In this document: positions 32,308 through 48,300 of the stretch, one piece after another
Layout: each line of letters starts with the position of its first letter
Position numbering within the stretch: the first letter of the stretch is position 1
Source: an uncultured Ruminococcus sp.
GTDB taxonomy: Bacteria > Bacillota > Clostridia > Oscillospirales > Acutalibacteraceae
Length of the DNA stretch: 50,893 nucleotides
Direction: 5' to 3'
Assembly: GCA_902785555.1 (NCBI GenBank)
Contig: CACZZB010000013.1
Span: 1 to 50,893, forward strand
Notes under the pieces: generated by a model
Databases searched by the model: none
Told to the model about the DNA's origin: nothing
The model's input: the letters and a program-made list of their open reading frames with translations, nothing else
Made by a program: the position numbers and the translations under genes

Positions 32308-33492
32308 TTAATCATTTTTCGCTCGTCTTTTTCTTTTCTTCCTGCCGTTTTCCCATTCACCGTCATACAATACCTTTCCTTTGGCATTTATAAGCTTTCC
32401 ATAGCCGTTTTGAATATCATTTTTCCATTCACCCTCGTATACATTTCCGTTGCGGTACGTCTGCTTTCCCCAACCTTCCGAAAGGTCATCAACAAATTCT
32501 CCTTCATAAATTCTGCCGTCAGACCATGTATACACTCCGTGTCCGTTGAACATTTCGTTTCCGAACTCACCGCAGTAAACATCACCATTGGGAAACTGCA
32601 CTTTTCCGAAGCCGTTCCTCAAATCGTCTTTATATTCTCCTTCATATATTTCACCGTTTGAAGAAATGTATTTTCCGAAGCCGTTTCTTAAATCATCACG
32701 AAATTCACCCTCATATACATCTCCGTCTGTATAAGTGTATTTTCCGTGACCGTTTTTATTATCATCTTTCCATTCACCCTCATAAAAATCCCCATTGGCA
32801 TAAGTATATTTCCCGAAACCGTCTTTCAGACCGTCCTTGAAATCGCCCTCGTAAGAATCACCGCCTGCATGTATCCATTTTCCTTTGCCGTTGGGGAAAT
32901 CGTCTTTAAACTCACACTCGCAAAAAGTACCTTTATCCCAGACATATTTTCCGTGACCGTTTTTCATGTCGTTTTTCCATTCACCCTCATAGTATGAGTT
33001 GTCAGGATAAGTTTCCCTGCCGAAACCCGACCTTTCATCTTCTTTGAAATATCCCTCATAGACAGTACCGTCACCACAGTCGAATTTTCCCTTGCCATGT
33101 TTAAGATAGTTCTTCCAGCTTCCTTCATACACTCCGCCGTCAGCCCATTTATATCTGCCTTCACCGTTAATGGCATCCTCTTTCCATTCACCGATATATT
33201 CATCTCCGGTTTCATATATATATTTTCCGATACCGTCACGCATCCCGTCTTTCCATTCGCCCTCATATACTGCACCGTCAACATATTCTACACGGTGATA
33301 ACCGTTGCGTTTTTCGTCTTCTTCATAGTCTTCGTCCTCAATCTCACGGCACTTTTGCAATATCCATTCATCAGGCAATTCTTTTTCGCATATTTCCTCT
33401 TTATCTTCTTCAAAAAGATTTTTATTCAATAATTTTGACACTTTGTCTATACAATCATCTATCGCCTTGTCTATAAAATCATCTGTCATCAA
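32308..33492 (-). CDS. MORN-repeat protein, 14 repeats
   Basis: 394 residues. An acidic N-terminal region of about 70 residues (DDFIDKAIDDCIDKVSKLL, EEDKEEICEKE) precedes about 14 MORN repeats of 22-24 residues, consensus YEGEWKDD-NG-GKY. The tail is very basic (GRKKRKRRAKND). MORN repeats form an extended beta sheet that binds lipids or proteins. There is no signal or membrane segment. The start lies 12 nt downstream of the Rsr stop on the same strand, and GGAGG precedes it, so the gene is almost certainly cotranslated with Rsr from the Y-RNA-like operon. A role as a Ro partner or effector is inference. The basic tail could bind RNA. Confidence 0.85.
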   Translation of the reverse strand: MMTDDFIDKAIDDCIDKVSKLLNKNLFEEDKEEICEKELPDEWILQKCREIEDEDYEEDEKRNGYHRVEYVDGAVYEGEWKDGMRDGIGKYIYETGDEYIGEWKEDAINGEGRYKWADGGVYEGSWKNYLKHGKGKFDCGDGTVYEGYFKEDERSGFGRETYPDNSYYEGEWKNDMKNGHGKYVWDKGTFCECEFKDDFPNGKGKWIHAGGDSYEGDFKDGLKDGFGKYTYANGDFYEGEWKDDNKNGHGKYTYTDGDVYEGEFRDDLRNGFGKYISSNGEIYEGEYKDDLRNGFGKVQFPNGDVYCGEFGNEMFNGHGVYTWSDGRIYEGEFVDDLSEGWGKQTYRNGNVYEGEWKNDIQNGYGKLINAKGKVLYDGEWENGRKKRKRRAKND

Positions 33493-33504
33493 ATATCCTC
33501 CATA

Positions 33505-34947
33505 TCATTCGATATAGTCACAATCCTCGATAGTCTTTATCAAACTGCTTGTACCCTGTTCGGAAAGCTGTATGAAATCAAGAACCTTTTCAGACCAACC
33601 TGCTATAATATTAGTCCTGTTCCCGTGAAACTGCTGTGTACCGTATCCAACTAAATCTATTGCGTGTACCCACAAATTTTGATTTGTCTGTTTTCTGTAT
33701 TCATAAGCCATCTGCTGAACGGTCTTTTTTGAGTACCAATTTATACGGTTACATTCATTATCGGACAAAATTATTATCCTGTCGGCTTTTATTTTTTTAT
33801 CCATCATTTCTTTGAACGGCAGATACATATTTGTACCGCCTCCGTAAGGAATATTACGTATTGTTTCAAGTATGGGTGTTTTGCTTGAAAAATCAAATTT
33901 TCTTATTTCCGTATCAAATGTATAAAAAATGCTGTTATCACAGATTTTATTTGCGACAAGTCCGAGCAAGACAGCTATTTCATAATACATGATATCCGAT
34001 TGCCTGCTGATACGTCCGCTCATTGAACCCGATACATCAACAGCTATAACAGTTGTACCCGATAATTTCGGCATATTTTCAACAGACACTTCAAGAGCGT
34101 TTTCAAGCACATCAAAGACTTTTGAGCCTGCAATATCGCTGACAGCCTTATATGCCGACAGATATCTGAAAGGAAGCTGTTTTGATTTTTTCACTCTCAC
34201 GGGGTCTTGTATGACATCAAGAACCGTCTGCAAATTTGACGGTTCAGCCTGCAATATATTCCTTAAATTCCTCAGATATGCCATGTAGCCGACTTTTCCG
34301 CTGTCAATGAGCTTTTCCCAAGTTTCTTTATTATTTCCGTTTTTTGATAATTCCGTTTCCCAAGTGACAGGTGTTTTCAAATTGCCCTCAATGCACCTTT
34401 TCCACATATCGGACTGTTCAGGTGTTTTGGGTGACGGTCTGCACATACATATCAGGTCACGCATTTTCACCGACTTATTATCACCTTTATATTTTGCAAG
34501 CGTATATTCGTCAAAATTTACAAGAACATCATTTATGCCTTTTTTAAGACTGTTCGGAACAGGTCTTTTTCCGAATGTATCTATGTAAAATGCCATTATC
34601 TCCGTGACATCATCTCCACGAACCGTCACACCTCTGACAGTTTTCCTTACAAAAGGCTTGCCCTCATTTTCATGTGCAAGGTATGCCGTCAAGACGTGTG
34701 CCACTGAACGCATATTGAATACACGCCTTGCAAAAATTGCAAGTTTAGACACAAGCTCAGGGTCACTTTTAATGACACTTACAATTGTTTTCTGCATATC
34801 TTCCGAGTTATCGCCGTAGAATTTGCTCTCATTGAAAAAAGATGTAAGCACTTGTGAAACGAGTTTTTCCTTGTCAGCCATTTTATAAGCAGGCTGACCA
34901 CAATTATTTACTGTTTTGATAGATTGTTTTAAATTGAATTTTGACAT
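33505..34947 (-). CDS. rsr: Ro60/Rsr-family TROVE-domain RNA-binding protein
   Basis: 480 residues. Residues 1-300 form the TROVE (HEAT-like ring) domain: an N-terminal glycine/Asn lead-in, KLAIFARRVFNMRSVAHVLT, and KMRDLICMCRPSPKTPEQS, a typical Ro motif. Residues 305-480 are a von Willebrand A domain with MIDAS site DVSGSMSG, a Thr in YGGGTNMYLPF and ILSDNECNR. Ro proteins bind misfolded RNAs in the ring cavity and Y RNAs on the outside; in Deinococcus Rsr works with PNPase and in Salmonella with YrlA and the RtcB repair genes. AGGGAGG is 7-8 nt upstream of the ATG. Five tRNA-like RNA units lie directly upstream in the same direction. Confidence 0.95.
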   Translation of the reverse strand: MSKFNLKQSIKTVNNCGQPAYKMADKEKLVSQVLTSFFNESKFYGDNSEDMQKTIVSVIKSDPELVSKLAIFARRVFNMRSVAHVLTAYLAHENEGKPFVRKTVRGVTVRGDDVTEIMAFYIDTFGKRPVPNSLKKGINDVLVNFDEYTLAKYKGDNKSVKMRDLICMCRPSPKTPEQSDMWKRCIEGNLKTPVTWETELSKNGNNKETWEKLIDSGKVGYMAYLRNLRNILQAEPSNLQTVLDVIQDPVRVKKSKQLPFRYLSAYKAVSDIAGSKVFDVLENALEVSVENMPKLSGTTVIAVDVSGSMSGRISRQSDIMYYEIAVLLGLVANKICDNSIFYTFDTEIRKFDFSSKTPILETIRNIPYGGGTNMYLPFKEMMDKKIKADRIIILSDNECNRINWYSKKTVQQMAYEYRKQTNQNLWVHAIDLVGYGTQQFHGNRTNIIAGWSEKVLDFIQLSEQGTSSLIKTIEDCDYIE

Positions 34948-34975
34948 TAAAATTACCTCCCTGATAAAAATAAAA

Positions 34976-35101
34976 GGCAGAGAAATCCAAAAACGGTAAG
35001 CATAAATTATGCTTGCTCTGCTCTGCCTGTTGAGCTATTCCCGAAAAGAGAAGCCGGACTCGAACCGGCAACACGAAGAACCCGTTTTTTGCACTGCTGC
35101 C
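34976..35101 (-). ncRNA. Y-RNA-like/tRNA-like unit E (nearest to rsr)
   Basis: 126 nt. Closing stem GGCAG/CTGCC, then the internal motif CAGTGCA (5') opposite GGATTTCT (3'), then inner stem AAAAACGG/CCGTTTTT. Inside, in order: conserved CTTCG, T-arm GCCGGTTCGAGTCCGGC (35053-35069), an acceptor-like hairpin TTCTC/GGGAA (35038-35052), a perfect D-arm TAGCTCAACAGGCAGAGC (35020-35037) and a hairpin AAGCATAATTTATGCTT at the place of an anticodon arm. The tRNA order is thus permuted: 3' half before 5' half, joined through a closed acceptor stem, as in YrlA RNAs. The break is in the variable region. No CCA end or free acceptor exists, so it cannot be aminoacylated. Confidence 0.82.
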
Positions 35102-35121
35102 ATAAAAATATATAAAATAAA

Positions 35122-35227
35122 GCGTGATGAAATCGAACACAGTCCCGCAGGACTCGAACCTGCACTCCCTTCGCCATAACAGCAAAGTTCAGACCAATCG
35201 AAGTAACTGTGATTCTGCAATACACGC
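35122..35227 (-). ncRNA. Y-RNA-like/tRNA-like unit D (apparently non-permuted)
   Basis: 106 nt, the shortest unit. Closing stem GCGTG/CACGC; motif TATTGCA opposite GATTTCAT; inner stem GAA(T)CACAGT/ACTGTGTTC. Inside: CTTCGATTGGTCTGAA can fold as a short D-arm, TTTGC-TGTTATG-GCGAA as an anticodon arm with 7-nt loop, then T-arm GCAGGTTCGAGTCCTGC (35147-35163). This is natural tRNA order with the Y-type stem in place of the acceptor stem; no separate acceptor hairpin is present. Alternative pairing of CTTCG with CGAAG is possible. Fold assignment is by eye. Confidence 0.75.
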
Positions 35228-35244
35228 ATTATTTTTTGAAAAAT

Positions 35245-35370
35245 GGGCGGAGAAATCCAAAAACAGACATAACGGCGTTCTGACAACTGAACTATCCCCG
35301 AAGGGAGTTGGACTCGAACCAACGACATCCGGCGTGACAGGCGAAGTAACTGTTTCCTGCACTGCCGCCC
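35245..35370 (-). ncRNA. Y-RNA-like/tRNA-like unit C (Asp-like, permuted)
   Basis: 126 nt. Closing stem GGGCGG/CCGCCC; motif CAGTGCA opposite GGATTTCT; inner stem GGAAACAG/CTGTTTTT. Order inside: TTACTTCGC, loop CTGTCAC (35334-35340, GTC anticodon position, tRNA-Asp-like), GCCGG, variable ATGTC, T-arm GTTGGTTCGAGTCCAAC (35307-35323), acceptor-like TCCC-TTCG-GGGA (35295-35306, a UUCG tetraloop), D-arm TAGTTCAGTTGTCAGAACG (35276-35294). The tRNA is permuted, with the Y stem inserted between D-arm and anticodon arm. The D-arm and anticodon loop closely match bacterial tRNA-Asp. Confidence 0.85.
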
Positions 35371-35386
35371 TTTGATTTGTATAACA

Positions 35387-35508
35387 AACAGAGAAATCCG
35401 AAAACAGCACATTAGGCACTTTACTTTTAAGTTATCCCCGAAGGGAGTCGGACTTGCACCGACATTTCCCGCTTATCAGGCGAAGTATCTGTTTTCTGCA
35501 CTGCTGTT
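35387..35508 (-). ncRNA. Y-RNA-like/tRNA-like unit B (Ile-like, permuted)
   Basis: 122 nt. Closing stem AACAG/CTGTT; motif CAGTGCA opposite GGATTTCT; perfect 8-bp inner stem GAAAACAG/CTGTTTTC. Inside: ATACTTCGC, loop CTGATAA (35473-35479, GAT anticodon position as in tRNA-Ile), GCGGG, T-arm GTCGG-TGCAAGT-CCGAC (35447-35463, with G for U at position 55), acceptor-like TCCC-TTCG-GGGA (35435-35446), and a diverged D-arm (35417-35434). Same topology as unit C, but the D- and T-loops are less conserved. Confidence 0.82.
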
Positions 35509-35525
35509 CATTATCTTGATAAAAA

Positions 35526-35671
35526 ACGGATAAAATCGAATACACTCCAAATAATCAGCGTGTCTGCCAATTCCACCATACCGCAAACTTAATTGCGGAA
35601 GCAGGATTTGAACCTGCACGGATATTATCCACTGACCCCCATAACGAAGTAATTGTATTCTGCAATGCCGT
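35526..35671 (-). ncRNA. Y-RNA-like/tRNA-like unit A (Leu-like, permuted, promoter-proximal)
   Basis: 146 nt. Closing stem ACGG/CCGT; motif CATTGCA opposite GATTTTAT; inner stem GAATACA/TGTATTC. Inside: TTACTTCG, then GTCAG, a class II-type variable hairpin GGATAATATCC, T-arm GCAGGTTCAAATCCTGC (35601-35617), acceptor-like stem CCGCAA-TTAAGT-TTGCGG (35581-35598), D-arm TATGGTGGAATTGGCAGACACGC (35558-35580), and CTGAT, which pairs with GTCAG as an anticodon stem. This is a circularly permuted tRNA-Leu whose anticodon loop is replaced by the Y-type stem. The transcript likely starts a few bases before it. Confidence 0.85.
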
Positions 35672-35681
35672 TTATACATTG

Positions 35682-35709
35682 ATTATATCATATTTTCCGA
35701 AAAATTCAA
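35682..35709 (-). promoter_or_regulatory. Promoter of the Y-RNA-like array-rsr-MORN operon
   Basis: Minus strand TTGAAT (35704-35709), 16-nt spacer, TATAAT (35682-35687). The predicted start falls near 35675, at the 5' edge of unit A. The -35 box abuts the stop of the queT-like gene. No terminator is seen from here to rsr. Confidence 0.75.
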
Positions 35710-35713
35710 CCTA

Positions 35714-36250
35714 TCAGGAAAATTTCTTTGACAGATTTCTTTTTTCTATTGCCGCAAAAAGCGGAAGTCCCAATACAAACAGTACGGCAATTTCACCGAC
35801 TGCAACAAGTCCGCCTTGTATCAGAAAATCAATAATATCAAAGCTGTATGTATTTACAAAGAAAAAGTCTATCTCAAAGCCTACTATTATACCATTCATC
35901 AAAGCAGGCATAAGCAATGCCGCAAACGGTATTTTGAAAAGCCTTACATTTCTGAGTTTATACATTGAAAATGCCGCAAGAAAGCTTGCTATACTTCCGA
36001 ATATCATATCAAATGCACCTATCGAAGCCAATGAACTTATATTTGCGATTATACAGCCGACTGTCAGTCCCGGTATAGCTGACGGAGTAAACAGTGCAAG
36101 TATCGTAAGTACCTCCGACACCCTGAACTGTACCGCCATTGATGCCGAACCCGGTACAAGTATATTCTGCATGATAGTCAGTGCCGCATACAATGCCGCA
36201 ATTATTGCCGCCTGTGTCAGCCTCTGCACCGATTTATTTTTCATTTTCAA
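35714..36250 (-). CDS. queT: QueT-like queuosine-precursor transporter (ECF S component type)
   Basis: 178 residues with five or six hydrophobic helices. The N-terminal VQRLTQAAIIAALYAALTIM and the FRVSEVLTILALFTPSAIPG motif are characteristic of QueT membrane proteins, which are proposed to import preQ0/preQ1. Start is TTG at 36250 or ATG at 36244; AGGGG lies 5 or 11 nt upstream. No preQ1 riboswitch pattern was found in the leader. It is just upstream of, and separate from, the tRNA-like array. Confidence 0.82.
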   Translation of the reverse strand: MKMKNKSVQRLTQAAIIAALYAALTIMQNILVPGSASMAVQFRVSEVLTILALFTPSAIPGLTVGCIIANISSLASIGAFDMIFGSIASFLAAFSMYKLRNVRLFKIPFAALLMPALMNGIIVGFEIDFFFVNTYSFDIIDFLIQGGLVAVGEIAVLFVLGLPLFAAIEKRNLSKKFS

Positions 36251-36365: not shown

Positions 36366-39300
36366 TTAACTAAGCTGTGCCGTAAATACTATCGGTGAAG
36401 TATCGTTCAAATCACTCATAATATTTTCTTTGATATCATCATAGCTTGCTGTTAAGTTTTCACCTGATGTATTCAGCCATGAAGCAAACGAATATGTTAT
36501 ACTCAAACCTGAACCTTGTCTGAATGATTCGTTTATCTCAAATGCAGAGTTACCGTCACTGACATTTATCAGTTTATTGACAATGGTTTCCCATTCATTA
36601 CTCTTTCCGATACTTCTGCCGTTGTGACGAACATCATAGACTGTTATCTTATCAGTATCTCCCGTTTCTTTCGTTTCATCATCAAGTATTATGAATGTAA
36701 ATTCATATTCACCTGTGTGAATTTCCTCGGGATTTTCTTCGACACTGTCATGTATGATACTGTCAACGAAGTATGAAACATTCGGGGTATCTACTCCGTT
36801 TACGATATCTGACTTGAATACAACCTGTCTTGTATAGAGTGTTTTCGGTTTATCACTTTCTGCCATGATAAGTTCAAAGTCCGTTTCATAGCTGTTATAC
36901 TTTGCTGTCAGCGTGTATATCTCGTCATTGTAACGTGAAGAATTATTGACTTTGATTTTATCGTTAGCGTTATCATAAGAGAAATCATTTTTTGTCTTGT
37001 CTGTATAACTGCCGAAATTCTTGTCATCATGTGTTTTATAAGTATAACTGATGCCAAGTTTCTTTATTTCATCATCAGTCATAGCTCTTTCAGAACCGTC
37101 TGCAAGTACCATATATGCCTTGAATCTTGTATTATCTGTCAGTGATACAGTCAATGTATCATCACCCGATATATCATCTTTTGTTTTATCAACATGATAC
37201 TCGGCTATTCTGATACCTTTTATGGTTTCGTGCTTATTATCATTATCAAGTGAGTAGAATGTATTGATATTCTCCTGTACCTCACTGAACTTGTCATAGT
37301 AAGCTACCTTATCATAGTAATGTACCATTGCTGTTTTGCTTGCAGGAATTGTTACCTCAACTTTCGGCTCTTTGCCCGTCATGGTCGGATTCTGCTCTGT
37401 ATGCTTGTGAGTTTCATAGATATTACTTGTATTGTCATCTTCAAGTTTCCATGTGTCCGCTACAAATTCATATCTCGAAACAGGCATACGGGTTATCTCA
37501 TATTTGCCCGGCTCTACTCTGATACGTCCCTCGTCGTCAATATGATACATTCCCTTATACTCTGATTCAGTTGTACCTTCAACAAGCCAGTTTGCATAAT
37601 CAATTCCAAGCGGGTCGGCTGTGAACTTGATTTCACCATTACTGTCATACTTTTCGACAATCTGTGTAATTACTTCATTATCTTCATTAACAGTAAGAGC
37701 CACAAGCATTTCTTTGCCGTCAGTATCCGTCAAAGCACCGTTAATATAATTAGCCGTCTGCTTTATCTTGAAGATGAATGTCGGGTCACCCCATGCTTCT
37801 TTCTTCATGTTGATATGCTCAAACAGTCTTATATATGCAGGTTGCATTTCGTCAGTGCAGGAAAGTTCCTGAACATCAAGACAATTATTGCGTCCTACTG
37901 TAAAGTATACTTTATTTCGGTTATCAGACTTATCGGCATTTGAATTTGTATAAACATAACCCGAATTTTCCTTTACAGCGACTTCTTCAAGATAATATGT
38001 ACCCCACGGGATATTCTCTATCTTGATTTGTCCGTGTTCATCCGTTTCGGGAGAATTGGAATCATCGCCTGTATTGTAATACTCAAAGTCTGTACCATCG
38101 GAATTATGTTCCCATACATAGTCGGAAGTATCATTTTCGGAGTCAACTCTTTCAGAAAGCATTTTGCTAAGAATTTCCTGTTGTTTTTGTGTCGGATTGT
38201 CGGGATATACATAATACTCTTGTAAGCCTGCTTTTCTGACAAGCTTTATTTCTTTTCTTATATCAGAATTGTCATAAAGCCTGAACTTGAAGCCGTCAAG
38301 TGCATTTCCGATATCGGTATTGCCGACTTTTTCCTTGGCAGTCTTTGTAAGCTGAACTGCTCCTGTTTTTGGTGAATCTGTCGCACTCTGCACATACGCC
38401 GCCAATTCTGATTCCTCTGCACCGACCTTGAATGTTGGCAGTGTTTCAACATCAATTTCATAGCCGTATGGTGCTTCTATTTCTTTCCAGAAATACTTGC
38501 CCCATTTCTTGACTTTGACCTCGGTTACACTTGTATTTTTGATGTCGTCAAGAGTATTTTTGAGGTATTCGTCATCTACAACTTCTTTACCATTAACTGT
38601 CTTTGTTCTGAGAGCTGTTATCCACTTAGTCAGACCGTCATAGCCTGTTTCGACTGTCGCAAGATAAACAGGTTCATCCGAACCGCCTATTACGATAAGC
38701 CCATCATCAGATTCTTTTTCCTCGTTTAGAAGTTCGAGATAATACAACGGTGTACCGATATTTTGAATAGTAACTGTGCCGTTCAATCCGTTAGCATTGG
38801 CATAAGCTGATGTACTGTTTTCTCCGAAATTATTAACCGCACTTCTTACAAATCTGTACAAACCGTTTTCCTTGATGTCTTTTACCTCGGAATAACGGTA
38901 GTTGTTGTATGTACTGTTTGCAGCATTTTTGCCTATGCCGTTGGTTATCTGGAATTTCTTTGCACTGTCAGGAATCCTTACACGATAAACTTCATCACCC
39001 TCATATTCAGCCATAAGCTCATACATCTTATAGCCTGCGGTATTGCCAATCGGATTATTATTCTCGTCAAAGAACCTGATATGCACATCATCAAGCTTAT
39101 AACGACCCGTCGCACCCGCTCTCAAATCCTTTGTACCGTTGTTGACAAAGAAAATATATTTGTCACTCAATGTTATAGTATTGGTTTGATTTTCGCTGTT
39201 GGTGTCATTATCATCAGGTCTACCCTGTGCCTTGTAAACATCATCTGTTGCATAAGCCGATTTTGTACCATAGTTTGCCGTTGTATCGTTTGGAGTATAG

Positions 39301-42300
39301 TTATAGCCCATTTGATATTCTATCTTTTGTGTAATCTTCCTGTCACTTGCAGAACCGTTATTGAAGATAACATACGGATAAACTTTACTGTCACTGCCCT
39401 GTTTGGGAGGCTGGAATACATATACAGATTTACCGCTGTTGTCTGTGTAAACCTTCTGTGCAGGAACACCCGGCCATGTATTGTATTCACCGTCTATGCC
39501 ACCGTAGTAGTAAGCATAAATTGTCTTACTGCCGTTGGAATTCCAACTATCCTTATCAGTGAAGTAGATGTAATCAAAGTCCGTAGTCGGTTCAAGTATC
39601 GAAATATCAGCACCATTGTGAAGTCCTATACGGTCTGTCGTATCAGAAATCGTCACTGCAGAACCATCTTTCGTTACAGTATAGGTATATTCTTTACTGT
39701 CATCAAGCACTGTGGCATTGCTGTAATTAGTGCCGTCACCCACTGCAAAGGACTTGGCATTTTTCGGCAATCTGATACGGTATTTATTGTCACCTATCTT
39801 CGTACCGACAGTAGAAGAACCGTTCAGTTTGGCATCTTCAAGATTGATACCACTTTCCACACCGCCAATAACATTACCAGTGCCGTCCGTTGTAGCATAG
39901 AACTTGATATAAGGCTTTTCAATGCCGGTATTGATAGTAATAAAGTTGTAGTCATTTCCATTACCAGTCGTATTTGTCAAATTGCTGATATAGCTGTATC
40001 TGTCCTCGGGCTGGTAAGTGGCTGATTTTGTGTTGCCATCATTAGAAACGACAGGATAAGTAATATCTTGTTCAGACCAATCACCACCGAAGTTTCCCCC
40101 CAATGTTTTTATTTTTTCCCAGTCAAGATTGCTTTTTATTTTCCAAACTTCTCCGGCTACAGGTGTCACACCAATGGTATGAGTATTAGAAAATCCATCA
40201 CAAGTGAGATAAATATCATTATATAAGTAATCAGATGAAATTTTGCGATTATATCCGTCATAACCTGAATCATCCCAATTTATTGCACTTGTCAAATAAT
40301 TGTTATCATTACTGTTACCATGACTACTACTTCTAACGATAACATCAACATTTGTATTTCTCCACTCATCTAATACAACATACAGATAACCCGTATTTTT
40401 AGCTGTGAAAGTATAACCCCAACCCTTTTTAGGAGCTATGCCCTGTAAATCTGTTTCTACCTTTTGGCTGTCACTTCCGTTATTACTGAAAACAACCTTT
40501 GTAGCACTTCCATAAGGATTTTCATTTGCAGACATATCAAACTGCCATGTATTAACGCTTATGTTAGTCATATTTACAGTGGTTCCTATTTGATGATTTT
40601 CATCATCTAAGAACTTTGCTTGTATATACTCACCAGAGTTAATCGTCCAACCTGCATTATTAATAAATTTCAAGTATTTGGTTGGTTCACCTGCAGGTTC
40701 TGAAACACTAACTTTTCTTTTTTGTCCGTCTTGAGCTGTTAAACCTAAGAATTTGTATCCAAAACCACCCGAACCATATCTACTCAAATCAATATCCACA
40801 GTTTGGTTAGCATCTCCATCATACAAACTGCGATGAAAAATAACATATTGATATTTTGCTGTTATATTGTCATCTTTTTTTGGAATTGCAATTTTCCAGA
40901 TGCCGTTGCCTTCTGATGTCATTTTACTTACTTCATTGCCCCAATCACAGTTTTTATCACTATCGTTATTGAAGAAATGTGCCTCTATTACATCTTCTAC
41001 CAATCCCCAACTATAATCTGAAGAACCAAGCTCTCCAGTATCAAATCTTATATAGTCATAGTTCGGATTGCCGTCACTCCATGAATATGTAACAGTTTCA
41101 TTACTTGTAGCTGTTCCTGTGTCGTACAATACAGGCATATCATCAGGCTCTGAGGCTGTGGACTGCGGTATCGGTACAACTGATGCTGACTTGTATTCTC
41201 CTACAACAGTCGGGTCTATGGTAGTAGTCTCCGAACTTGTCGGCACACTGTCACCCTCCGGCCACTCTATGACCTCATTTTCTGTGAAATTCGGATAGAA
41301 CGGCTTTCCGTCATTATATGCACTCGCCAACCCAAGTGTATATACACCGGCTGATTCACTGTCCGAAATACGGTACTGCATTCCGCCTAATGTATAGTCA
41401 TCTTTATACGGTGATATCTTTGTACGCTTGGTGTATATCGGATAGGCTTTATCCAACTGCTTTGTCGGGCTTGATGTTGCATCATACACCTTAAACGACT
41501 TCGCACTGTACGGGATAGCCGCTTTATACCAATGTCCGACTGCTTCGGGGATAACAGTTGTTTTACCGTCTTCGGGTATAGTACCATCTGTGGCTTTTGA
41601 AAGACTGCCTGTATACTTCATTTGGATATTATCTGCATTGCTGATGACGTTTTCACCTTTCTCATCAGAGTAGAATGTGACATACATATTATTCCAATTA
41701 TTACTTTGACCGCATACAAGATACAGATAATCTCCACGCTCGTCATAGTTACCTGTACCGCTTCCGGACGAAACTCCGTTTGTGAATGTCGGCCAAATAA
41801 TTTCGGCTGTATTTGCACCCGTAGTCTTATAGTACATACCGCCTGTTGTAAATGTAGTATCCTCTGCACCACTATTTGAGATAGTCTTTGGATAAATTTG
41901 ATAATGACCATCGCCGTTAATAGTAAATGACGTTGCCGCTGACGGAATATCCAGACTCCACCAATGCTTACCATTATAAGTTCCGCTGTTTTCAGCCTTG
42001 CTCATGATACCACTGTAGAAATCTTTCTCGCCTATCTTTATATTATTTTCATCATAGAATCTTATTTGAGGCTTGTTTGAAAGACTCCAGCCATTATTCA
42101 TATCAACGATATTCAGCTTATCGCCACGGGATATATAATCCGCATCATTGACCTGTTCATTAGATTCGGTGCTTTCAGTTTCTGTCCTTGTCATTGTAGG
42201 ACTGCACAGTGTAAGAGCATACGTTGTATCTGAAGTTGGAGTGTCGGCTATCTGATAGACCATACTTCCTGTTTTCGTATAGCCTGATGTCGTGGGATTT

Positions 42301-45300
42301 GCAGAATACTCCAGTATCGGATACTTGGCAGTAGACTTTGAATTATTCACCGTACTGCTTGACTTATCATTACCGTTATTCAAAGAGAATGTCGTCGCAT
42401 TTTGCGGAACAGGTACTTTATACCACTCGGTATCTTCACCATTCAGTTTTCCGGTATACTTCATTACATAGCCTGTATTTTGCTGTAATATCTGTGTACT
42501 GCCGTTATAGAACTTGATGTGTATATCGTCCCATGAATTAGTAGCGTTATTTTTGATATAGATATAATCAACCGTACCGCCACTCGTGCGGAATGTGTAA
42601 GGAATAGTGGAATTTGACTGTTCCTGAGTCCATTCTCCGACACCTGTCTTGGATGCGTTTTCATTATAGGCATAATAGCCCTTACCAAGAGTATATGTGA
42701 TAACATTTGTTTCCTTGCCGTTAAGATTGCCGATTGCTGTACCTGCTCCGACAAGACCATTACTGAATATCACCTTCGTATAGTTCCTGTTGTCACCCAA
42801 CGGACGCTTGAATCTATATACAGTTTCATTGTACTTGTTTTTGAATTTTGCTCCCGGCAAAAGCTGTACAGTATTGATATTATCATTGAAAACATTGCTT
42901 CCGTTTATATTCGTCGGGTCATACTGCAATTCGGAGTTGAACGGCAGAACACCCGGCCATATTGACCATATAGCTCTCTGCCAGTTGTCCTGACGAAGAT
43001 CTCCGCCGCCATAGAAATAAGCATAAACATTATCCCAACTGCTCGGCTTTGTGAAGTAGATGAAATCATGATCTGATTCCACTTCAAATGCTGTTGCATT
43101 GTTATCATAGACAGTATCGTGAATTGTACCGTTTCCTTTGGTTATTTCATTTTCTGTCCATCTTGTAAGCGTGCCGCCCTTCTTGATTGACTGTGAATCA
43201 CTGTCAAACTTCCAATAGTTATTGTAGTTTTTCTTGTTTGCAGATTCTGCTGAAAAGTCAATTTCGGTGATTGCTGTATAGTAATAGCCATACCCCTTAT
43301 AATAGTCGGAACTTGTATTACTGCTGTGAGTAGATGTCGTACCGTTATTGATTCTGAAATGCGTTGCACCTTTTGGGATAGCTATCTCATAGCACAAATC
43401 ACCGGCATTTTCAGTTCTGTCATCAAATTCAATACGATAATCTGCTTTTGCGTAAGCATAAGGCTCCATCATGTAGCCGGGGAATCGTTCACCAACAGGC
43501 TCATAAGTATCAGTTCCTGTTTGCTTAAAGAATTCGATATGAATATTATCCCAGCAGTAATAGTGATTACGTCTGAAAATAATCTTTTGCGGCAGTGCCT
43601 TATAAGCTACACCGCTGTTTCCGGCTGTTCTGTCATCATTATTACCCACTTCACTACTCTTTGCCCCGAGATTATCCCAGACACCAGCATTTGTTACACT
43701 TTGTTGTGAGCCATTATTGTTTCTTCTGTACAGATTTCCCTTTGTAAATTCAAAGACTTTCGTGCTGTTGGACAATCCATTCCACCCAAGAATGAATCTG
43801 ACAGATTTTGCACCGTCAGGCGGCTGAATCTTCCAGATAATATTCTGTGTTCTTCCTGTGCTTGGTGACTGAGAATTGGATGCGTTGTATGTTACACCAC
43901 TGTCGGTATAGTAAACAAAACGCTCCCAAACTTTATATTTTCCAATGGAGTTAGTGCCGTTGGAGTCACTGAAAAATTCCGCAACAATATCTGTATTTGA
44001 TTCATTATTCAGTTCGCCCATTGTCAGCCCTCTGCTGTCTTTATGATAAGTGGTAACAATATTTGTATTGTTCTTCCAAAACCAATGGTCTGCACTGTAA
44101 CAATCCACATCCTCAAAGAAGATATAATCATTGTCTGTTCTCGGCAGTACCCAGTTTGAAGATTCGGCAGTCGGAACAGTTCCCATTTCGGAATAGCTGT
44201 ATGTAACAGTATGATGTTGTACGGTATCTTGTGCGGCATTTGGAATTGCCGGTTTAGTGTTAGTGCTGTCAATAGTTTGACTTGGTATCGGAGATGTTAC
44301 AGGACTGTTGATACTGTATGTAGGCGGTGTGACCACATCAGGCTTGTACCACAGTTCAAATATACCGCCCTCAAGACCGTTATGATATTTGTCCTCTTTG
44401 AGTATCTTGAGACTGACTGCTTTGCGGGGGTCTTTATGTTCAACAGGAACAACCTTGTTATCAGATGTTATTTCAAAAGGCTCACAATAACTCCATTCAT
44501 ATCCTTCAGGAGCCTGCACTTCAACAAAAGCATAACGTCCTTCCATGATACCTGTAATAGGTCCTATCATACCGTTGCTGTCGGTCGTATAAATATAAGA
44601 TATAAGCTCACCGTTTACTTCATCTGATGTCTGCCAATATTCCTTAACAGCATCCGTCAGCACACCCTTACATTCTTTCAACGCATTATCAGCAGCTTCT
44701 ATATACTGCTCTTTGTTTACTCCTTCTTCATGATAATACTCATAAACTTTCATTTGAAGGAAATAATAAGTCGCATTAGGAAGCTGTATTTTTGTGTCTG
44801 TTGCATCCTCTTTGACAAGAGTTATCTTGGTTTCTTCAACATGCTGAAGATTGCCTATACGGTTTTTAACGTTAGAATTGCCCTGAATAAATCCGCTGTC
44901 ATAAGTTACTTTATCCGCAGTTGTTGAAGTTCCGCTATTGACATCAATTGTAAATACAGCAGGAGTACCGCTTGGCAGGAATCCTTGTGGTGCCTCGGTT
45001 TCGGTAAGAGTATAGGTATTGAGAGGAAAATTCTTGAATATTATCTTACCGTCATCACCGGATTCAACGATATTATTTCCGTTTACATCAGGAATATAAC
45101 TTTTGTCTGTGTCTTGTTTAACTTTTACGGGAGTTCCGTTGTTATAAGTCAGTGCAAACTTTGCACCCGGTATTACAATATCACTGTAAAGACCGCTTGT
45201 ATGGTTGCTGTACGCATCATAATGAGTTTTATCGACCTTGATAACCGTTGCACCGCCTGTAATCTGGGTATTCGTAACTGTCACTGACGGAGTAGCGGTT

Positions 45301-48300
45301 TCAGCTGCGGTAATTATTCCGTCATCAGGAGAATATGTCGCATTGTAGCCCTCAAGAGGATTTTCCACTACTTTATAAACATACTTATTATTTGCCGAAT
45401 CGTAAACGGGAAGTTTGTCAAACTCTGCTGACATGGAATTGCTGTATGCTACATCTTTTGTTCTGAAATTAATGTATGTGCCACTCTCATTCTTTTGCTG
45501 CAAAGTCAAGGAAACAGGAGAATTACGATACTTATTCAAGCTGTCATCATACATCAAAGCATTATATGTCCATTGTTTTGTTACTCCAATCTTTGTCACC
45601 GGCAAAGTATTTAGAATATTGAACTGCATATTGCCTGTTACAGAATCAGTTTCAAGTGTACAGCTTCCAAAGTAGCCATAACGCTTACTGCCGCAAGTAA
45701 ATTTGTTTCCGGCATCTTCACCGCTTGTATGATAGGCTTCTGCAATCTGTTCTAAAGAAGCTGTATCATCTGTTGCATCCTCCTGCACCTTGTAAGAAAC
45801 GACTGTTGTACCGTCTTTTTTATATCTCGGCAGATTTTCAAATTTCACACCGTTTTTATCCGTATTCTCAATGACCTTTACATTATTATAAGTACTTGGT
45901 ACGTTTATATTGTCACTGCTCAAAGTTACTTTTACATTGTAGTGCAAATCGTTTCCATTTTCACAGTCGTTATCCTGCCAGCTTTTTGCAACAATAACCT
46001 CTATTGTATCGAGTTTATTGGTTATATCAAAGGTCTGTTTAAGAATAGTGTTGCCGTCCCATGTTGAGCCTGATGAAAGCTCATCAACAGATGTGACTTT
46101 CTGCTTATCTGTATAGCCTGATGTTTTGTCATAATCATCCGCAATGCGATACTGACAAGCTTCATAAGCCTTTACAGATGCTTCGGTTATCTTGAAATTA
46201 TAAGAGGTGTTATTCGCATCATACTTCACTGTCGTTGTAGTATCTTTTGTGCCGGATTTATACCAGTCCTCTTTATATGTATCAGTATTTGTCGGATGTA
46301 TGTCCGTATAAGTATTATCGTCTGCCGTACTTAACTTTCTTGAAATCGTCAGGTCTATGCTGTCGGTAACAGTTTCACCCTTGTTCTTATCATTGATATT
46401 GCTCGGTCTTAAATTGAATTCATTATTCTGGTCAAGCCAATGTTTCTTGACCTGAACAGCCGTCAGAGGAAGTACATCTGTGATATGATAACGGCTGGTA
46501 TATGTTCTGCCCGAATCATTTTTTGTATACTTGACTGCACTGCCTTCATAACCGTAATCACGCTGACTTGTATCTGCTTTAAGCTGTTCAAATTCTGTTT
46601 CTCCTGCGTTGGATGTTGCATAATCATTCCATGAACCTACATCGGCAATATTATCTGTACCTGTTGAAGGTGATTGATTGGTCTTTGATTCCGTCACCTT
46701 GTAGACAATGACATTACCGTTTTTGTCGTATATCGGAACATTTTTGAACACAACGCCCTGTGGAGTATTAGCTGCAAATGCCTCTGCCGCAATATACTTC
46801 GTGTTATCATTATAAACAGTTGTTTGTGTTGTACCGTTATCAAAAGTTGTTGTACCTTTCAATGTAACAGCTGTTGTATAATGGAGTTTTTTACTCAGGT
46901 CGGAAACTTTGTCATTACCCTCAGTAACGCCATAACCGTTGTCGTCCCACTCCTTTGTAACAAGAAAATCTCTTGTTACAGGTGTGTTCTTGACGTATAT
47001 CGTCTTATCGGCAGGATTAGAGTTAATATTGCTTGGGGTAGTCAACAAATTTGTGCCTGTAATGGTTTTGCCGTCACCTGTATATCCCGAAGCTGTTCCG
47101 TAATAATTAGTATTGTCTGCAGAATACTCACTCTTATATACATGACCGTTTACTTCAAATGTTTCCTTGACATAATACGTAACAGCCTGCCATTTTTCGG
47201 GAGTCCCCGGTTTCGTTGCCGTACCGTCTACATTGATATATACCGGCAAGTGTGTAAATACATGGGTACTTTCATACTGACTTTCATCATAACCGTTAGT
47301 GGAAGCATTATCCGAAACAGCTTGGAAATTGTTGGTATCTAATTCCAAAGTCGGTTCATACAGGTATGTTTCACCCTGTGCAATTTTTGTATCAATATGT
47401 GTTTTTATACCGATAATCGCTGTCGTATCTTCCGACACTTTATGGTCTGTAAAGGTAGTTCCGTCACTGTTCATGTATCTGCACCAGAGTTCAACCTTTA
47501 TCTTCGACAGGTCAGTTGGGCGGATAGTATCCTTGTAGCCGACATCATTCCATATCTTCTTGACAGTAAGCTGTTTTTCCGTGATATCATACTTGTTGGT
47601 AAACGTGTAGTCGGTATTCATGATAGAACTGTCATCAGTTCTTGCAGTCGGATTACCTTTAACATAAGAACTGCTGTACTGAGCAGGTGTGACTTCGACT
47701 ATCTGATATGAATATTCATTATTTTGAGCATCATATTTACGCTGTTTGCCGAAATCAACTTTCCAGTTGTTGTCTTGTGTTGCATTCAGACTTGCTACAT
47801 CAGTCCATGACGTTTCCGTGCTGATTTTTCTTTGCAGCTTGAACGTAACACTCGTTGGACGGACTTTATCACGGTTGTATTCATCGTCCCATTCTTTCTG
47901 AGCCGTAAAGCTGACAAGCGGAAGTGTATTTGTGATAGTGATAGAACCGTCACCGCCTGTAAGTGTAACACCACCGGAAATACTGCTTTCATAACCGTAT
48001 TGCTGTCCTGTTTCAGTTGCCGAATATGATATAGCTGTACCATTGGCATCATATACCGGTAAATTGACAAACTCACAAGACTCTGCACCTGCTGTTATAG
48101 TGTCGCTGTTGCTGTAATTGCTTGACTGAATAACAAGTTCATGCTGGGCATTTTCTACATACTTGCCATAACTTGCCGCTAAACCAACCGTAATATCATA
48201 GTGAAGTGTATTTGTATCGGTATAATTTTTATCTACCCAGTTTTTGTACACTGTCACTTTTTTGGTATCGAGGGTATTTTTAACTTCAAGCGGTTTGGTA

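What the first reader, a model, noticed from the sequence alone, without database searches (positions are those of the whole stretch)
34976..35671. Array of five tandem Y-RNA-like/tRNA-like RNAs upstream of a Ro60 gene
Five units of 106-146 nt stand head to tail with spacers of 16-20 nt on the same strand as rsr. Each has an outer stem, a conserved internal motif, an inner stem and a tRNA-like core with T-loop TTCRANT (four of five). YrlA-type bacterial Y RNAs with tRNA mimicry and Rsr proteins are known, but usually as one or two RNA genes per locus. A diversified five-member array transcribed into the Ro gene is not something I know to be described. It suggests Rsr is loaded with a set of different adaptors or decoys.
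Basis: partly seen in the sequence, partly recalled or inferred. Interest (0 to 1): 0.95.

Follow-up and report, generated by a model that had tools for sequence, protein, structure and literature searches.

The report
Y RNA array displaying tRNA anticodons
Five small-RNA-like units stand head to tail in front of a bacterial Ro60 gene; four of them hold tRNA parts in permuted order, two of these also hold the anticodon loop letters of two different real tRNAs, and the set likely serves as baits for enzymes that cut or read tRNA anticodons.

Summary
The array is real: five units (106-150 nt, minus strand, 34976-35673) lie just downstream of a promoter-like site and upstream of rsr (TROVE/Ro60). 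Over 59 related units 97.0% of base-pair cells pair and 19 of 23 pairs change on both sides. The array is not unique: the seven closest genomes (own included) hold 4-6 units, another congener 7, an IMG/VR viral contig 10.

New to me: many units are whole tRNAs permuted between D arm and anticodon arm. The Y motif UACUUCGN supplies the 5' strand of an anticodon stem; the next seven letters equal a natural tRNA anticodon loop in 11 of 34 units (shuffled mean 0.13), 5 of 8 further Bacillota hits (0.03) and 13 of 53 viral units (0.2). Window unit B reads Ile(GAU), unit C Asp(GUC); unit A is a class-II, Leu-like body. Loops diverge faster than bodies, and bodies do not follow the anticodon. Outside Ruminococcaceae, 8 of 9 loci with scanned neighbours have a tRNA-repair gene nearby. 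Proposed function: decoys for anticodon nucleases (inferred, untested). Against: unconstrained folding gives the stem-loop little weight in units B and C.

The parts
35524..35673 (-). Unit A, 150 nt: Y-RNA-like stem plus permuted class-II, Leu-like tRNA body
   Evidence: R1 108.5 bits; 7 orthologues, 98.8% of cells paired
35620..35630 (-). Unit A: variable-arm-like hairpin GGATAATATCC
   Evidence: sequence; pairs conserved in 7 of 7 but invariant, so uninformative as covariation
35601..35617 (-). Unit A: T arm GCAGG-TTCAAAT-CCTGC
35560..35577 (-). Unit A: D arm, Leu-like (score 41 against 24 for the next isotype)
   Evidence: place
35632..35636 (-). Unit A: anticodon-stem 3' strand GTCAG, paired with 35558-35554 (CTGAT)
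   Evidence: 5 of 5 pairs change on both sides, all cells paired in 7 genomes
35554..35558 (-). Unit A: partner strand CTGAT after the D arm
   Evidence: place
35386..35509 (-). Unit B, 124 nt: Y-RNA-like stem, anticodon stem-loop, T arm (TGCAAGT), acceptor-like hairpin, D arm
   Evidence: R1 109.7 bits
35468..35484 (-). Unit B: possible anticodon stem-loop TTCGC-CTGATAA-GCGGG, loop letters of tRNA-Ile(GAU)
   Evidence: BLAST top rows tRNA-Ile at weak E-values 0.8-10; unconstrained stem probability only 0.26
35245..35370 (-). Unit C, 126 nt: as unit B, T arm GTTGG-TTCGAGT-CCAAC
   Evidence: R1 112.8 bits; YrlA 29.6 bits below cut-off
35329..35345 (-). Unit C: possible anticodon stem-loop TTCGC-CTGTCAC-GCCGG, loop letters of tRNA-Asp(GUC), 4 of 5 stem pairs
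   Evidence: unconstrained stem probability 0.0
35122..35227 (-). Unit D, 106 nt: Y-RNA-like stem, variable-arm-like hairpin and T arm only
   Evidence: R1 60.1 bits; 7 orthologues
34976..35101 (-). Unit E, 126 nt: T arm, acceptor-like hairpin, D arm and an extra hairpin AAGCATAATTTATGCTT; no anticodon loop seen
   Evidence: R1 96.5 bits; YrlA 44.2 bits, cut-off 69
35682..35709 (-). Promoter-like site TTGAAT-16-TATAAT just before unit A
   Evidence: 10 of 12 positions; 6 sites found in the region against 4.1 in shuffles, so weak
34956..34961 (-). Ribosome-binding-site-like GGGAGG before rsr
   Evidence: sequence
33505..34947 (-). rsr, Ro60/TROVE protein, 480 aa
   Evidence: PF05731 E 3e-33, PF25045 vWA_Ro60 E 9.7e-11

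Best explanation
The 700-bp leader of rsr encodes five predicted Y RNAs, four with tRNA parts in permuted order and two with the anticodon loop letters of Ile and Asp tRNAs, which likely bind Rsr by their paired ends and likely act together as a panel of decoys that would draw anticodon-cutting nucleases away from real tRNAs. Shown by sequence and comparison: the repeated stems, the permuted order T arm - closed acceptor - D arm, covariation, anticodon loops that equal natural tRNA loops far more often than shuffled letters, loops that change faster than the bodies, and tRNA-repair genes near rsr in several other Bacillota. Inferred: that one transcript starts before unit A and is cut in the A+T-rich spacers, that the ends bind Rsr, that the anticodon stem-loop forms in the cell, and that nucleases are the target. 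Because the acceptor is closed by a loop and bears no CCA end, the units could not be charged; they would be sacrificial or blocking substrates. Rsr could hold and protect the bait, or pass cut baits to decay or repair enzymes.
For: Structure: 59 units, 97.0% of cells paired, 340 two-sided changes against 93 in shuffles; unit A anticodon stem 5 of 5 pairs change on both sides. Anticodon loops at a fixed offset: 11 of 34 exact and 21 of 34 within one mismatch (shuffled means 0.13 and 1.9); further sets 5 of 8 and 13 of 53. Stem: pair 31-39 is Watson-Crick in 65 of 95 units, shuffled mean 31.1, maximum 47 of 5000. Generic body: anticodon identity does not predict the nearest isotype of the D side (mean rank 9.95 of 20, shuffled 10.04) or, clearly, of the T side (9.61 against 11.22, 135 of 2000), so what is tRNA-specific is the loop. 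Loops 19 of 63 mismatches against 76 of 1111 in the bodies over nine (not independent) pairs with bodies at least 90% identical; two units of one array have near-identical bodies (3 of 123) and loops of Cys(GCA)-like and Asp(GUC) type (4 of 7). Repair genes near rsr: Hen1_L, Pnkp-like, RNA_lig_T4_1, RtcB, RlaP, Tpt1/KptA. Viral contigs hold such arrays, some beside integrase, RtcB, RlaP or RNA ligase genes. A decoy role for YrlA was suggested in PMC7790460 (passage).
Against: No expression, Rsr-binding or nuclease data. Unconstrained folding gives the anticodon stem a mean probability of 0.34 in 22 units, 0.26 in window B and 0.0 in window C. Units A, D and E have no recognisable anticodon loop, so only two of five window units show one. 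No repair gene was seen among the window neighbours scanned nor among the few neighbour proteins scanned in four other Ruminococcaceae loci. In Salmonella YrlA was not cut by the nuclease at work there (passage of PMC7790460). No nuclease was looked for in these genomes.
Confidence: 0.42

Rival explanations
1. Adaptors, as in the RYPER model: the tRNA-like parts tether Rsr to PNPase or to tRNA-modifying enzymes, and the anticodon loops are docking sites for anticodon-loop modifying enzymes (for example TGT for loops with UGU at 33-35).
For: RYPER and modification of YrlA by DusA and TruB are described in PMC8394870 (passages). queT, a queuosine-precursor transporter family gene, lies just upstream of the array (PF06177 E 2.9e-38). 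Loops with GUU and GUC are the commonest anticodons (7 and 5 of 43 unique stem-loop units).
Against: 24 different anticodons occur in those 43 units, many not queuosine tRNAs (Ile GAU, Lys UUU, Pro UGG, Ser GCU); queT-like sequence was not seen upstream in L028, L030 or L032 (by eye).
Confidence: 0.25
2. Cut-sensors: cleavage of the displayed anticodon loop alters the Rsr-Y RNA particle or frees fragments that switch on the RNA-repair response.
For: WYL/WCX regulator genes stand near several loci; in Salmonella tRNA fragments activate the operon through RtcR (passages).
Against: No such regulator was seen beside the window array among the proteins scanned; no data on cleavage.
Confidence: 0.15
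3. Relics: the units descend from permuted tRNAs or from junctions of tandem tRNA genes, and the anticodon loops have no role.
For: The order T arm - acceptor - spacer - acceptor - D arm equals the junction of two tandem tRNA genes, and unit A matches such junctions in phages.
Against: Relic loops should decay; instead they stay natural while changing faster than the bodies, with a covarying closing pair.
Confidence: 0.1
4. A cis-acting leader: the array regulates rsr expression by its folding or processing, and the separate RNAs have no function of their own.
For: The units lie in the 5' leader of rsr without a clear terminator between them and the gene.
Against: Unit number varies from 1 to 10 and each unit has its own closed stem with the conserved motif; in L301 14 tRNA genes lie between array and rsr.
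Confidence: 0.08

Closest known systems
YrlA (Y RNA-like A; Rfam RF02553)
   Same: Encoded beside a Ro60 gene; paired ends; order T arm - acceptor-like hairpin - D arm in units A, B, C, E; the Rfam consensus shown has the same order and a similar 5' motif (AAUGC ... ACUACG against AUUGC/AGUGC ... UACUUCG).
   Different: Below the Rfam cut-off (44.2 and 29.6 bits, cut-off 69); the consensus shown has no anticodon stem-loop and no variable arm; arrays of up to 5 here.
Bacterial Y RNAs in general (Deinococcus Yrn, Salmonella YrlA/YrlB)
   Same: Ro60-linked RNAs; two per locus known in Salmonella (PMC7790460, passages); Deinococcus work is mentioned there, details recalled.
   Different: Diversified sets with different anticodon loops; I found no description of this in the searches named in Tried and rejected.
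Transfer RNA
   Same: T arm, D arm, acceptor-like stem, and in some units an anticodon stem-loop with U33 and a purine at 37.
   Different: Permuted; acceptor ends joined by a loop, no CCA; ARAGORN finds none in the window. Two related units (L165, L119) just pass the Rfam tRNA cut-off of 29 (30.1 and 29.6 bits).
Pnkp-Rnl-Hen1 and RtcB RNA-repair systems
   Same: Their genes lie near rsr and Y units in several Bacillota.
   Different: Enzymes, not RNAs; none seen beside the window array.

Membership tests
YrlA (Rfam RF02553) | Score at or above Rfam gathering (69 bits) | tested here: not met
   44.2 and 29.6 bits in units E and C; no YrlA hit at gathering in the window or in 18 unit-bearing loci
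YrlA (Rfam RF02553) | tRNA-like domain in the order T arm, acceptor-like hairpin, D arm | tested here: met
   Four of five units (A, B, C, E); unit D has the T arm only
Bacterial Y RNA (broad sense) | Encoded next to a Ro60/Rsr gene | tested here: met
   rsr 28 nt downstream, TROVE PF05731 E 3e-33; conserved in the close genomes
Bacterial Y RNA (broad sense) | Paired 5' and 3' ends with a conserved internal motif | tested here: met
   Outer helix 98.9% paired in 31 units, 5 of 6 pairs with two-sided change; 95.5% in 59 units
Bacterial Y RNA (broad sense) | Stable RNA bound by Rsr | not testable with these tools
   No expression or binding data
RYPER adaptor | tRNA-like part binds PNPase | not testable with these tools
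   -
Transfer RNA | Cloverleaf in normal order with a 3' CCA-bearing acceptor | tested here: not met
   ARAGORN 0 genes in the window; acceptor strands joined by a loop
Anticodon stem-loop mimic | 7-nt loop equal to a natural tRNA anticodon loop, closed by a stem | tested here: met
   Units B and C exact, with 5 of 5 and 4 of 5 possible stem pairs; family-wide excess over controls
Anticodon stem-loop mimic | The stem-loop is the favoured fold | tested here: inconclusive
   Unconstrained probability 0.26 for B and 0.0 for C, up to 0.89 in relatives; closing pair covaries
Decoy for anticodon nucleases | Lowers cleavage of real tRNA | not tested
   Experiment needed

The most novel reading that the evidence does not exclude
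Ro60 in bacteria and phages is the holder of a fast-changing library of anticodon displays: permuted tRNA bodies with interchangeable anticodon loops, renewed by an arms race with anticodon nucleases, so that each array is a record of which tRNAs were under attack. This would explain why Ro60 RNAs mimic tRNA at all, why they come in sets, and why they sit with RNA-repair genes.
Probability: 0.3. Interest if true: 0.93.

Novelty: new variant of a known kind. Interest (0 to 1): 0.8.

Why it matters
Why bacterial Y RNAs imitate tRNA, and why Ro60 lies in RNA-repair operons, is open. If Y RNAs display real anticodons on a generic tRNA body, the question becomes testable: each loop names the tRNA, and so the kind of nuclease or modifying enzyme, to try. 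It would also give Ro60, a human autoantigen with relatives in gut bacteria, a concrete role in conflicts over tRNA.

Tried and rejected
Isotype mimicry of whole tRNAs: my first idea, that each unit copies one whole tRNA, failed. In 22 units labelled by their loop the D side and T side do not follow the anticodon isotype. Those labels include three units of L028, L029 and L030 whose loop (within one mismatch of His) has only 2 of 5 stem pairs and is probably no anticodon loop, and L027 unit B, labelled Asp by nearest loop although its triplet GUU would read Asn. Unit A is the exception on its D side (Leu 41, next 24); its T side is not specific (Leu 41, Met 40; in L028 Asn 42, Leu 37).

Reading frame: shifted by one base upstream the exact count is 1 of 34 in the first set and 4 of 53 in the viral set (10 of 53 within one mismatch), shifted by +2 there are 6 of 34 within one mismatch; other shifts give 0 or 1 exact. 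Some units thus have the loop one base earlier. Relatedness: 26 distinct loops lie in the 34 units, 5 exact and 13 within one.

Circularity: the reference tRNA-Ile(GAU) came from a phage found by BLAST with unit B itself; without it 9 of 34 would be exact. The further Bacillota and viral sets were found with model R2, which was built on units that already held such loops, so they are not blind to the region, though no pair of that model lies in the anticodon stem.

Rows dropped: of 85 units 63 have a T arm by my rule and 34 the class-I length. Of 136 unique viral units 10 lack ACTTC, 50 lack a T arm by my rule, 23 have another length, 53 were read. Weak model hits were mostly not examined: two of three weak ones are ordinary tRNAs, the third was not looked at; the 22 genomes with 33.5 bits or less, and those with 38.4 bits or less, were not looked at. 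In one search, 248 of 398 genomes have a sub-threshold YrlA hit, none over the cut-off; the listed ones were not examined.

Phage origin of the window locus: not supported by neighbours (gatCAB-like genes, Fur, MORN protein) but not tested further. LexA box, promoter strength and terminators: nothing convincing.

Literature (searches, all in the held open library): no paper listed there describes anticodon loops in Y RNAs; I saw listings and abstract starts, and passages of PMC8394870, PMC7790460 and PMC7824862. PMC4411300 was seen only as listing and start of abstract. Chen 2014, Sim and Wolin 2018, Wang 2018 and Burroughs and Aravind 2016 are not held; what I say of them is recalled or taken from the passages named. 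PDB entries 9l5y and 9kop (TROVE domain-containing protein) may belong to recent work that I could not see.

Full report
Observation. On the minus strand, between a promoter-like site (35709-35682) and rsr (34947-33505, TROVE PF05731 E 3e-33), stand five units: A 35673-35524, B 35509-35386, C 35370-35245, D 35227-35122, E 35101-34976. Each begins and ends with a paired outer stem whose letters differ between units (GAACAG/CTGTTT, GGGCGG/CCGCCC, GCGTG/CACGC and so on), followed by the motif (C)AGTGCAG or (C)ATTGCAG, an inner stem and TTACTTCG-like letters (unit E: GTTCTTCG), and on the 3' side an ATTT(C/T)(T/A)T motif. Rfam does not name them at gathering score; YrlA comes nearest.

Relatives. 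Rsr of at least 45% identity occurs in 13 of 64 congeneric genomes, and the same 13 have unit matches with model R2 above 50 bits (one more genome, G043, has a single 32.6-bit match): 5 in the window's genome, 4 to 6 in the six other genomes with Rsr 87-91% identical, and 3, 1, 7, 6, 1 and 1 in G037, G053, G051, G042 (on two contigs), G030 and G044. Ten further genomes have only a distant Rsr (about 30%) and none of them matches; single weak matches (25-29 bits) lie near rsr in four of those ten loci (L016, L017, L018, L020). Of 300 family genomes 8 match R1 at E 0.001, two of three weak ones being ordinary tRNAs on inspection. Of 391 class genomes 30 match, 8 of them (own included) above 40 bits; of 398 phylum genomes 120 match, 9 (own included) above 50 bits. 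Named relatives are rumen Ruminococcus MAGs and Acetivibrio alkalicellulosi.

Structure. In 31 units of the seven close genomes 97.7% of 656 cells pair, with 143 two-sided changes against 46 in shuffles; in 59 units 97.0% of 1242 cells, 340 against 93. That second alignment was fitted to the model, which leans towards the structure; the first was made by sequence alone, the structure being taken from unit C. Unit A over seven genomes: all five pairs of its anticodon stem change on both sides and all cells pair; the acceptor has seven possible pairs (93.9% paired); T, D and variable-arm pairs are nearly invariant and so say little. Its D arm is Leu-like, and BLAST finds for it an unannotated gut-phage record that reads by eye as a tRNA-Leu (H16) and junctions of tandem tRNA genes (Asn-Leu in L214, Pro-Leu in L213).

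Anticodon loops. In units of class-I length the letters UUCGN of the conserved motif can pair with the five letters that follow a 7-nt loop, and then come 4-5 letters (often AGGUC, as in tRNA) and the T arm. So the tRNA is cut open between nucleotides 26 and 27 and its acceptor ends are joined. I collected 59 distinct natural loops from 113 tRNAs (own genome, G046, Acetivibrio, three phage loci). At the fixed offset 11 of 34 units equal one of them and 21 of 34 lie within one mismatch; letters shuffled within the same stretch give 0.13 and 1.9 on average, at most 2 and 9 in 2000 rounds. U33 is present in 27, a purine at 37 in 25 of 34. Exact loops: Ile(GAU) in window B and L031; Asp(GUC) in window C and L193; Lys(UUU) in five; Arg(UCU) in L011; Pro(UGG) in L012. 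Two further sets gave 5 of 8 and 13 of 53 (30 within one), shuffled means 0.03 and 0.2. The closing pair 31-39 is Watson-Crick in 65 of 95 units (C-G 35, A-U 18, U-A 10 and others), shuffled mean 31 and maximum 47 in 5000. Among 43 unique stem-loop units with at least 4 stem pairs, U33 and a purine at 37 there are 24 anticodons, GUU (7) and GUC (5) commonest. In the seven arrays with two such units no anticodon is repeated.

What varies. Nine pairs of units with bodies at least 90% identical have 19 of 63 loop and 76 of 1111 body mismatches (pairs not independent, two of them with identical loops). The clearest, two units of one array in G051, differ at 3 of 123 body positions and 4 of 7 loop positions (Fisher p 1e-4): one reads AUGCAAA, one mismatch from the Cys(GCA) loop, the other CUGUCAC, the Asp(GUC) loop. 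Slots B and C of the close genomes read Ile, Asp, GUU, Thr-like GGU, while slots A, D and E stay alike. The bodies do not follow the loop's isotype. The part that is specific is therefore the loop.

Against. Unconstrained folding favours the stem-loop in some relatives (0.89 in L164 and L193:173) but on average only 0.34 in 22 units, 0.26 in window B and 0.0 in window C. Window B has another small hairpin over the same letters. Covariation argues for the stem; a bound protein or tertiary contacts may be needed, or the loop may be read unfolded.

Neighbours. I scanned chosen reading frames with Pfam, not all of them, and chose some because they looked like repair enzymes. Outside Ruminococcaceae nine loci were scanned. 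Eight have a repair gene near rsr: L217 (RNA_lig_T4_1, Hen1_L, kinase-phosphatase), L218 and L219 (Hen1_L, Pnkp-like), L222 (RtcB, RlaP), L232 (Tpt1/KptA-like frame), L292 (RtcB), L294 (RlaP), L299 (RlaP, Hen1_L); L293 gave WYL/WCX regulators only. L220 was not scanned, of L221 only rsr was, and L295-L298 were not. WCX/WYL regulators stand near L217, L218, L222, L292, L293 and L294. In the window the five proteins scanned are rsr, QueT, MORN, Fur and TM2; one or two proteins in each of L223, L226, L227 and L228 gave no repair family. In viral contigs 194 relatives of Rsr were confirmed and the best 80 kept; 56 of these 80 have units at E 1e-4, L316 ten, L307 seven, L310 six, and L301 has 14 tRNA genes between its units and rsr. 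Of 116 reading frames listed there I scanned 66: integrase 4, RtcB 1, RlaP 1, RNA ligase 1, poly(A)/CCA polymerase head 1. IMG/VR contigs are predicted to be viral; some may be cellular.

Mechanism. Shown: sequence, covariation, loop identity, neighbours. Inferred: transcription from the site before unit A, cutting in the spacers, Rsr binding to the conserved end region, and function. I commit to decoys for anticodon nucleases, because the loop is the specific, fast-changing part, because tRNA-repair enzymes are neighbours, and because phages, which face such nucleases (PMC7824862, passages), hold the same arrays. A decoy or competitor role for YrlA was raised in PMC7790460, for an RNA that in the Rfam consensus has no anticodon loop. 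Adaptor and sensor roles remain open.

Novelty. Bacterial Y RNAs, their tRNA-like part, two per locus and their link with RNA repair are known. Complete anticodon stem-loops with interchangeable natural loops, in sets, I did not find described in the searches named. I rate this a new variant of a known kind.

Noticed in passing
35714-36250 (-): queT-like gene (PF06177, E 2.9e-38) directly upstream of the array on the same strand; Asp and Asn loops are those of queuosine tRNAs. Not seen upstream in L028, L030 and L032 (by eye).
   Followed up: partly
36366-50861 (-): An open frame of 4831 aa with repeated similar segments; looks like a large surface protein (by eye).
   Followed up: no
32308-33492 (-): MORN-repeat protein directly downstream of rsr (PF02493, E 3.3e-79).
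   Followed up: no
L028:1031-1212: Unit E of this relative holds a direct repeat of its 3' half, either a real duplication or an assembly fault.
   Followed up: no
L301, L312, L307: Ordinary tRNA genes stand beside or inside the viral Y RNA arrays (14 in L301, one tRNA-Leu each in L312 and L307).
   Followed up: partly
L232:9139-9510: Tpt1/KptA-like frame before the Acetivibrio units (PF01885); by eye the upstream reading frame is interrupted by a stop. Not mended.
   Followed up: partly
L213, L214: The order of parts in unit A equals the junction of two tandem tRNA genes, a possible origin of permuted units.
   Followed up: partly
rsr, window 33505-34947: The nearest solved structures by sequence are 9l5y and 9kop, TROVE domain-containing protein (E 1.6e-35).
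   Followed up: no
L016, L017, L018, L020, L024: Weak single matches (25-31 bits) near distant rsr genes, possibly Y RNAs without tRNA-like part.
   Followed up: no
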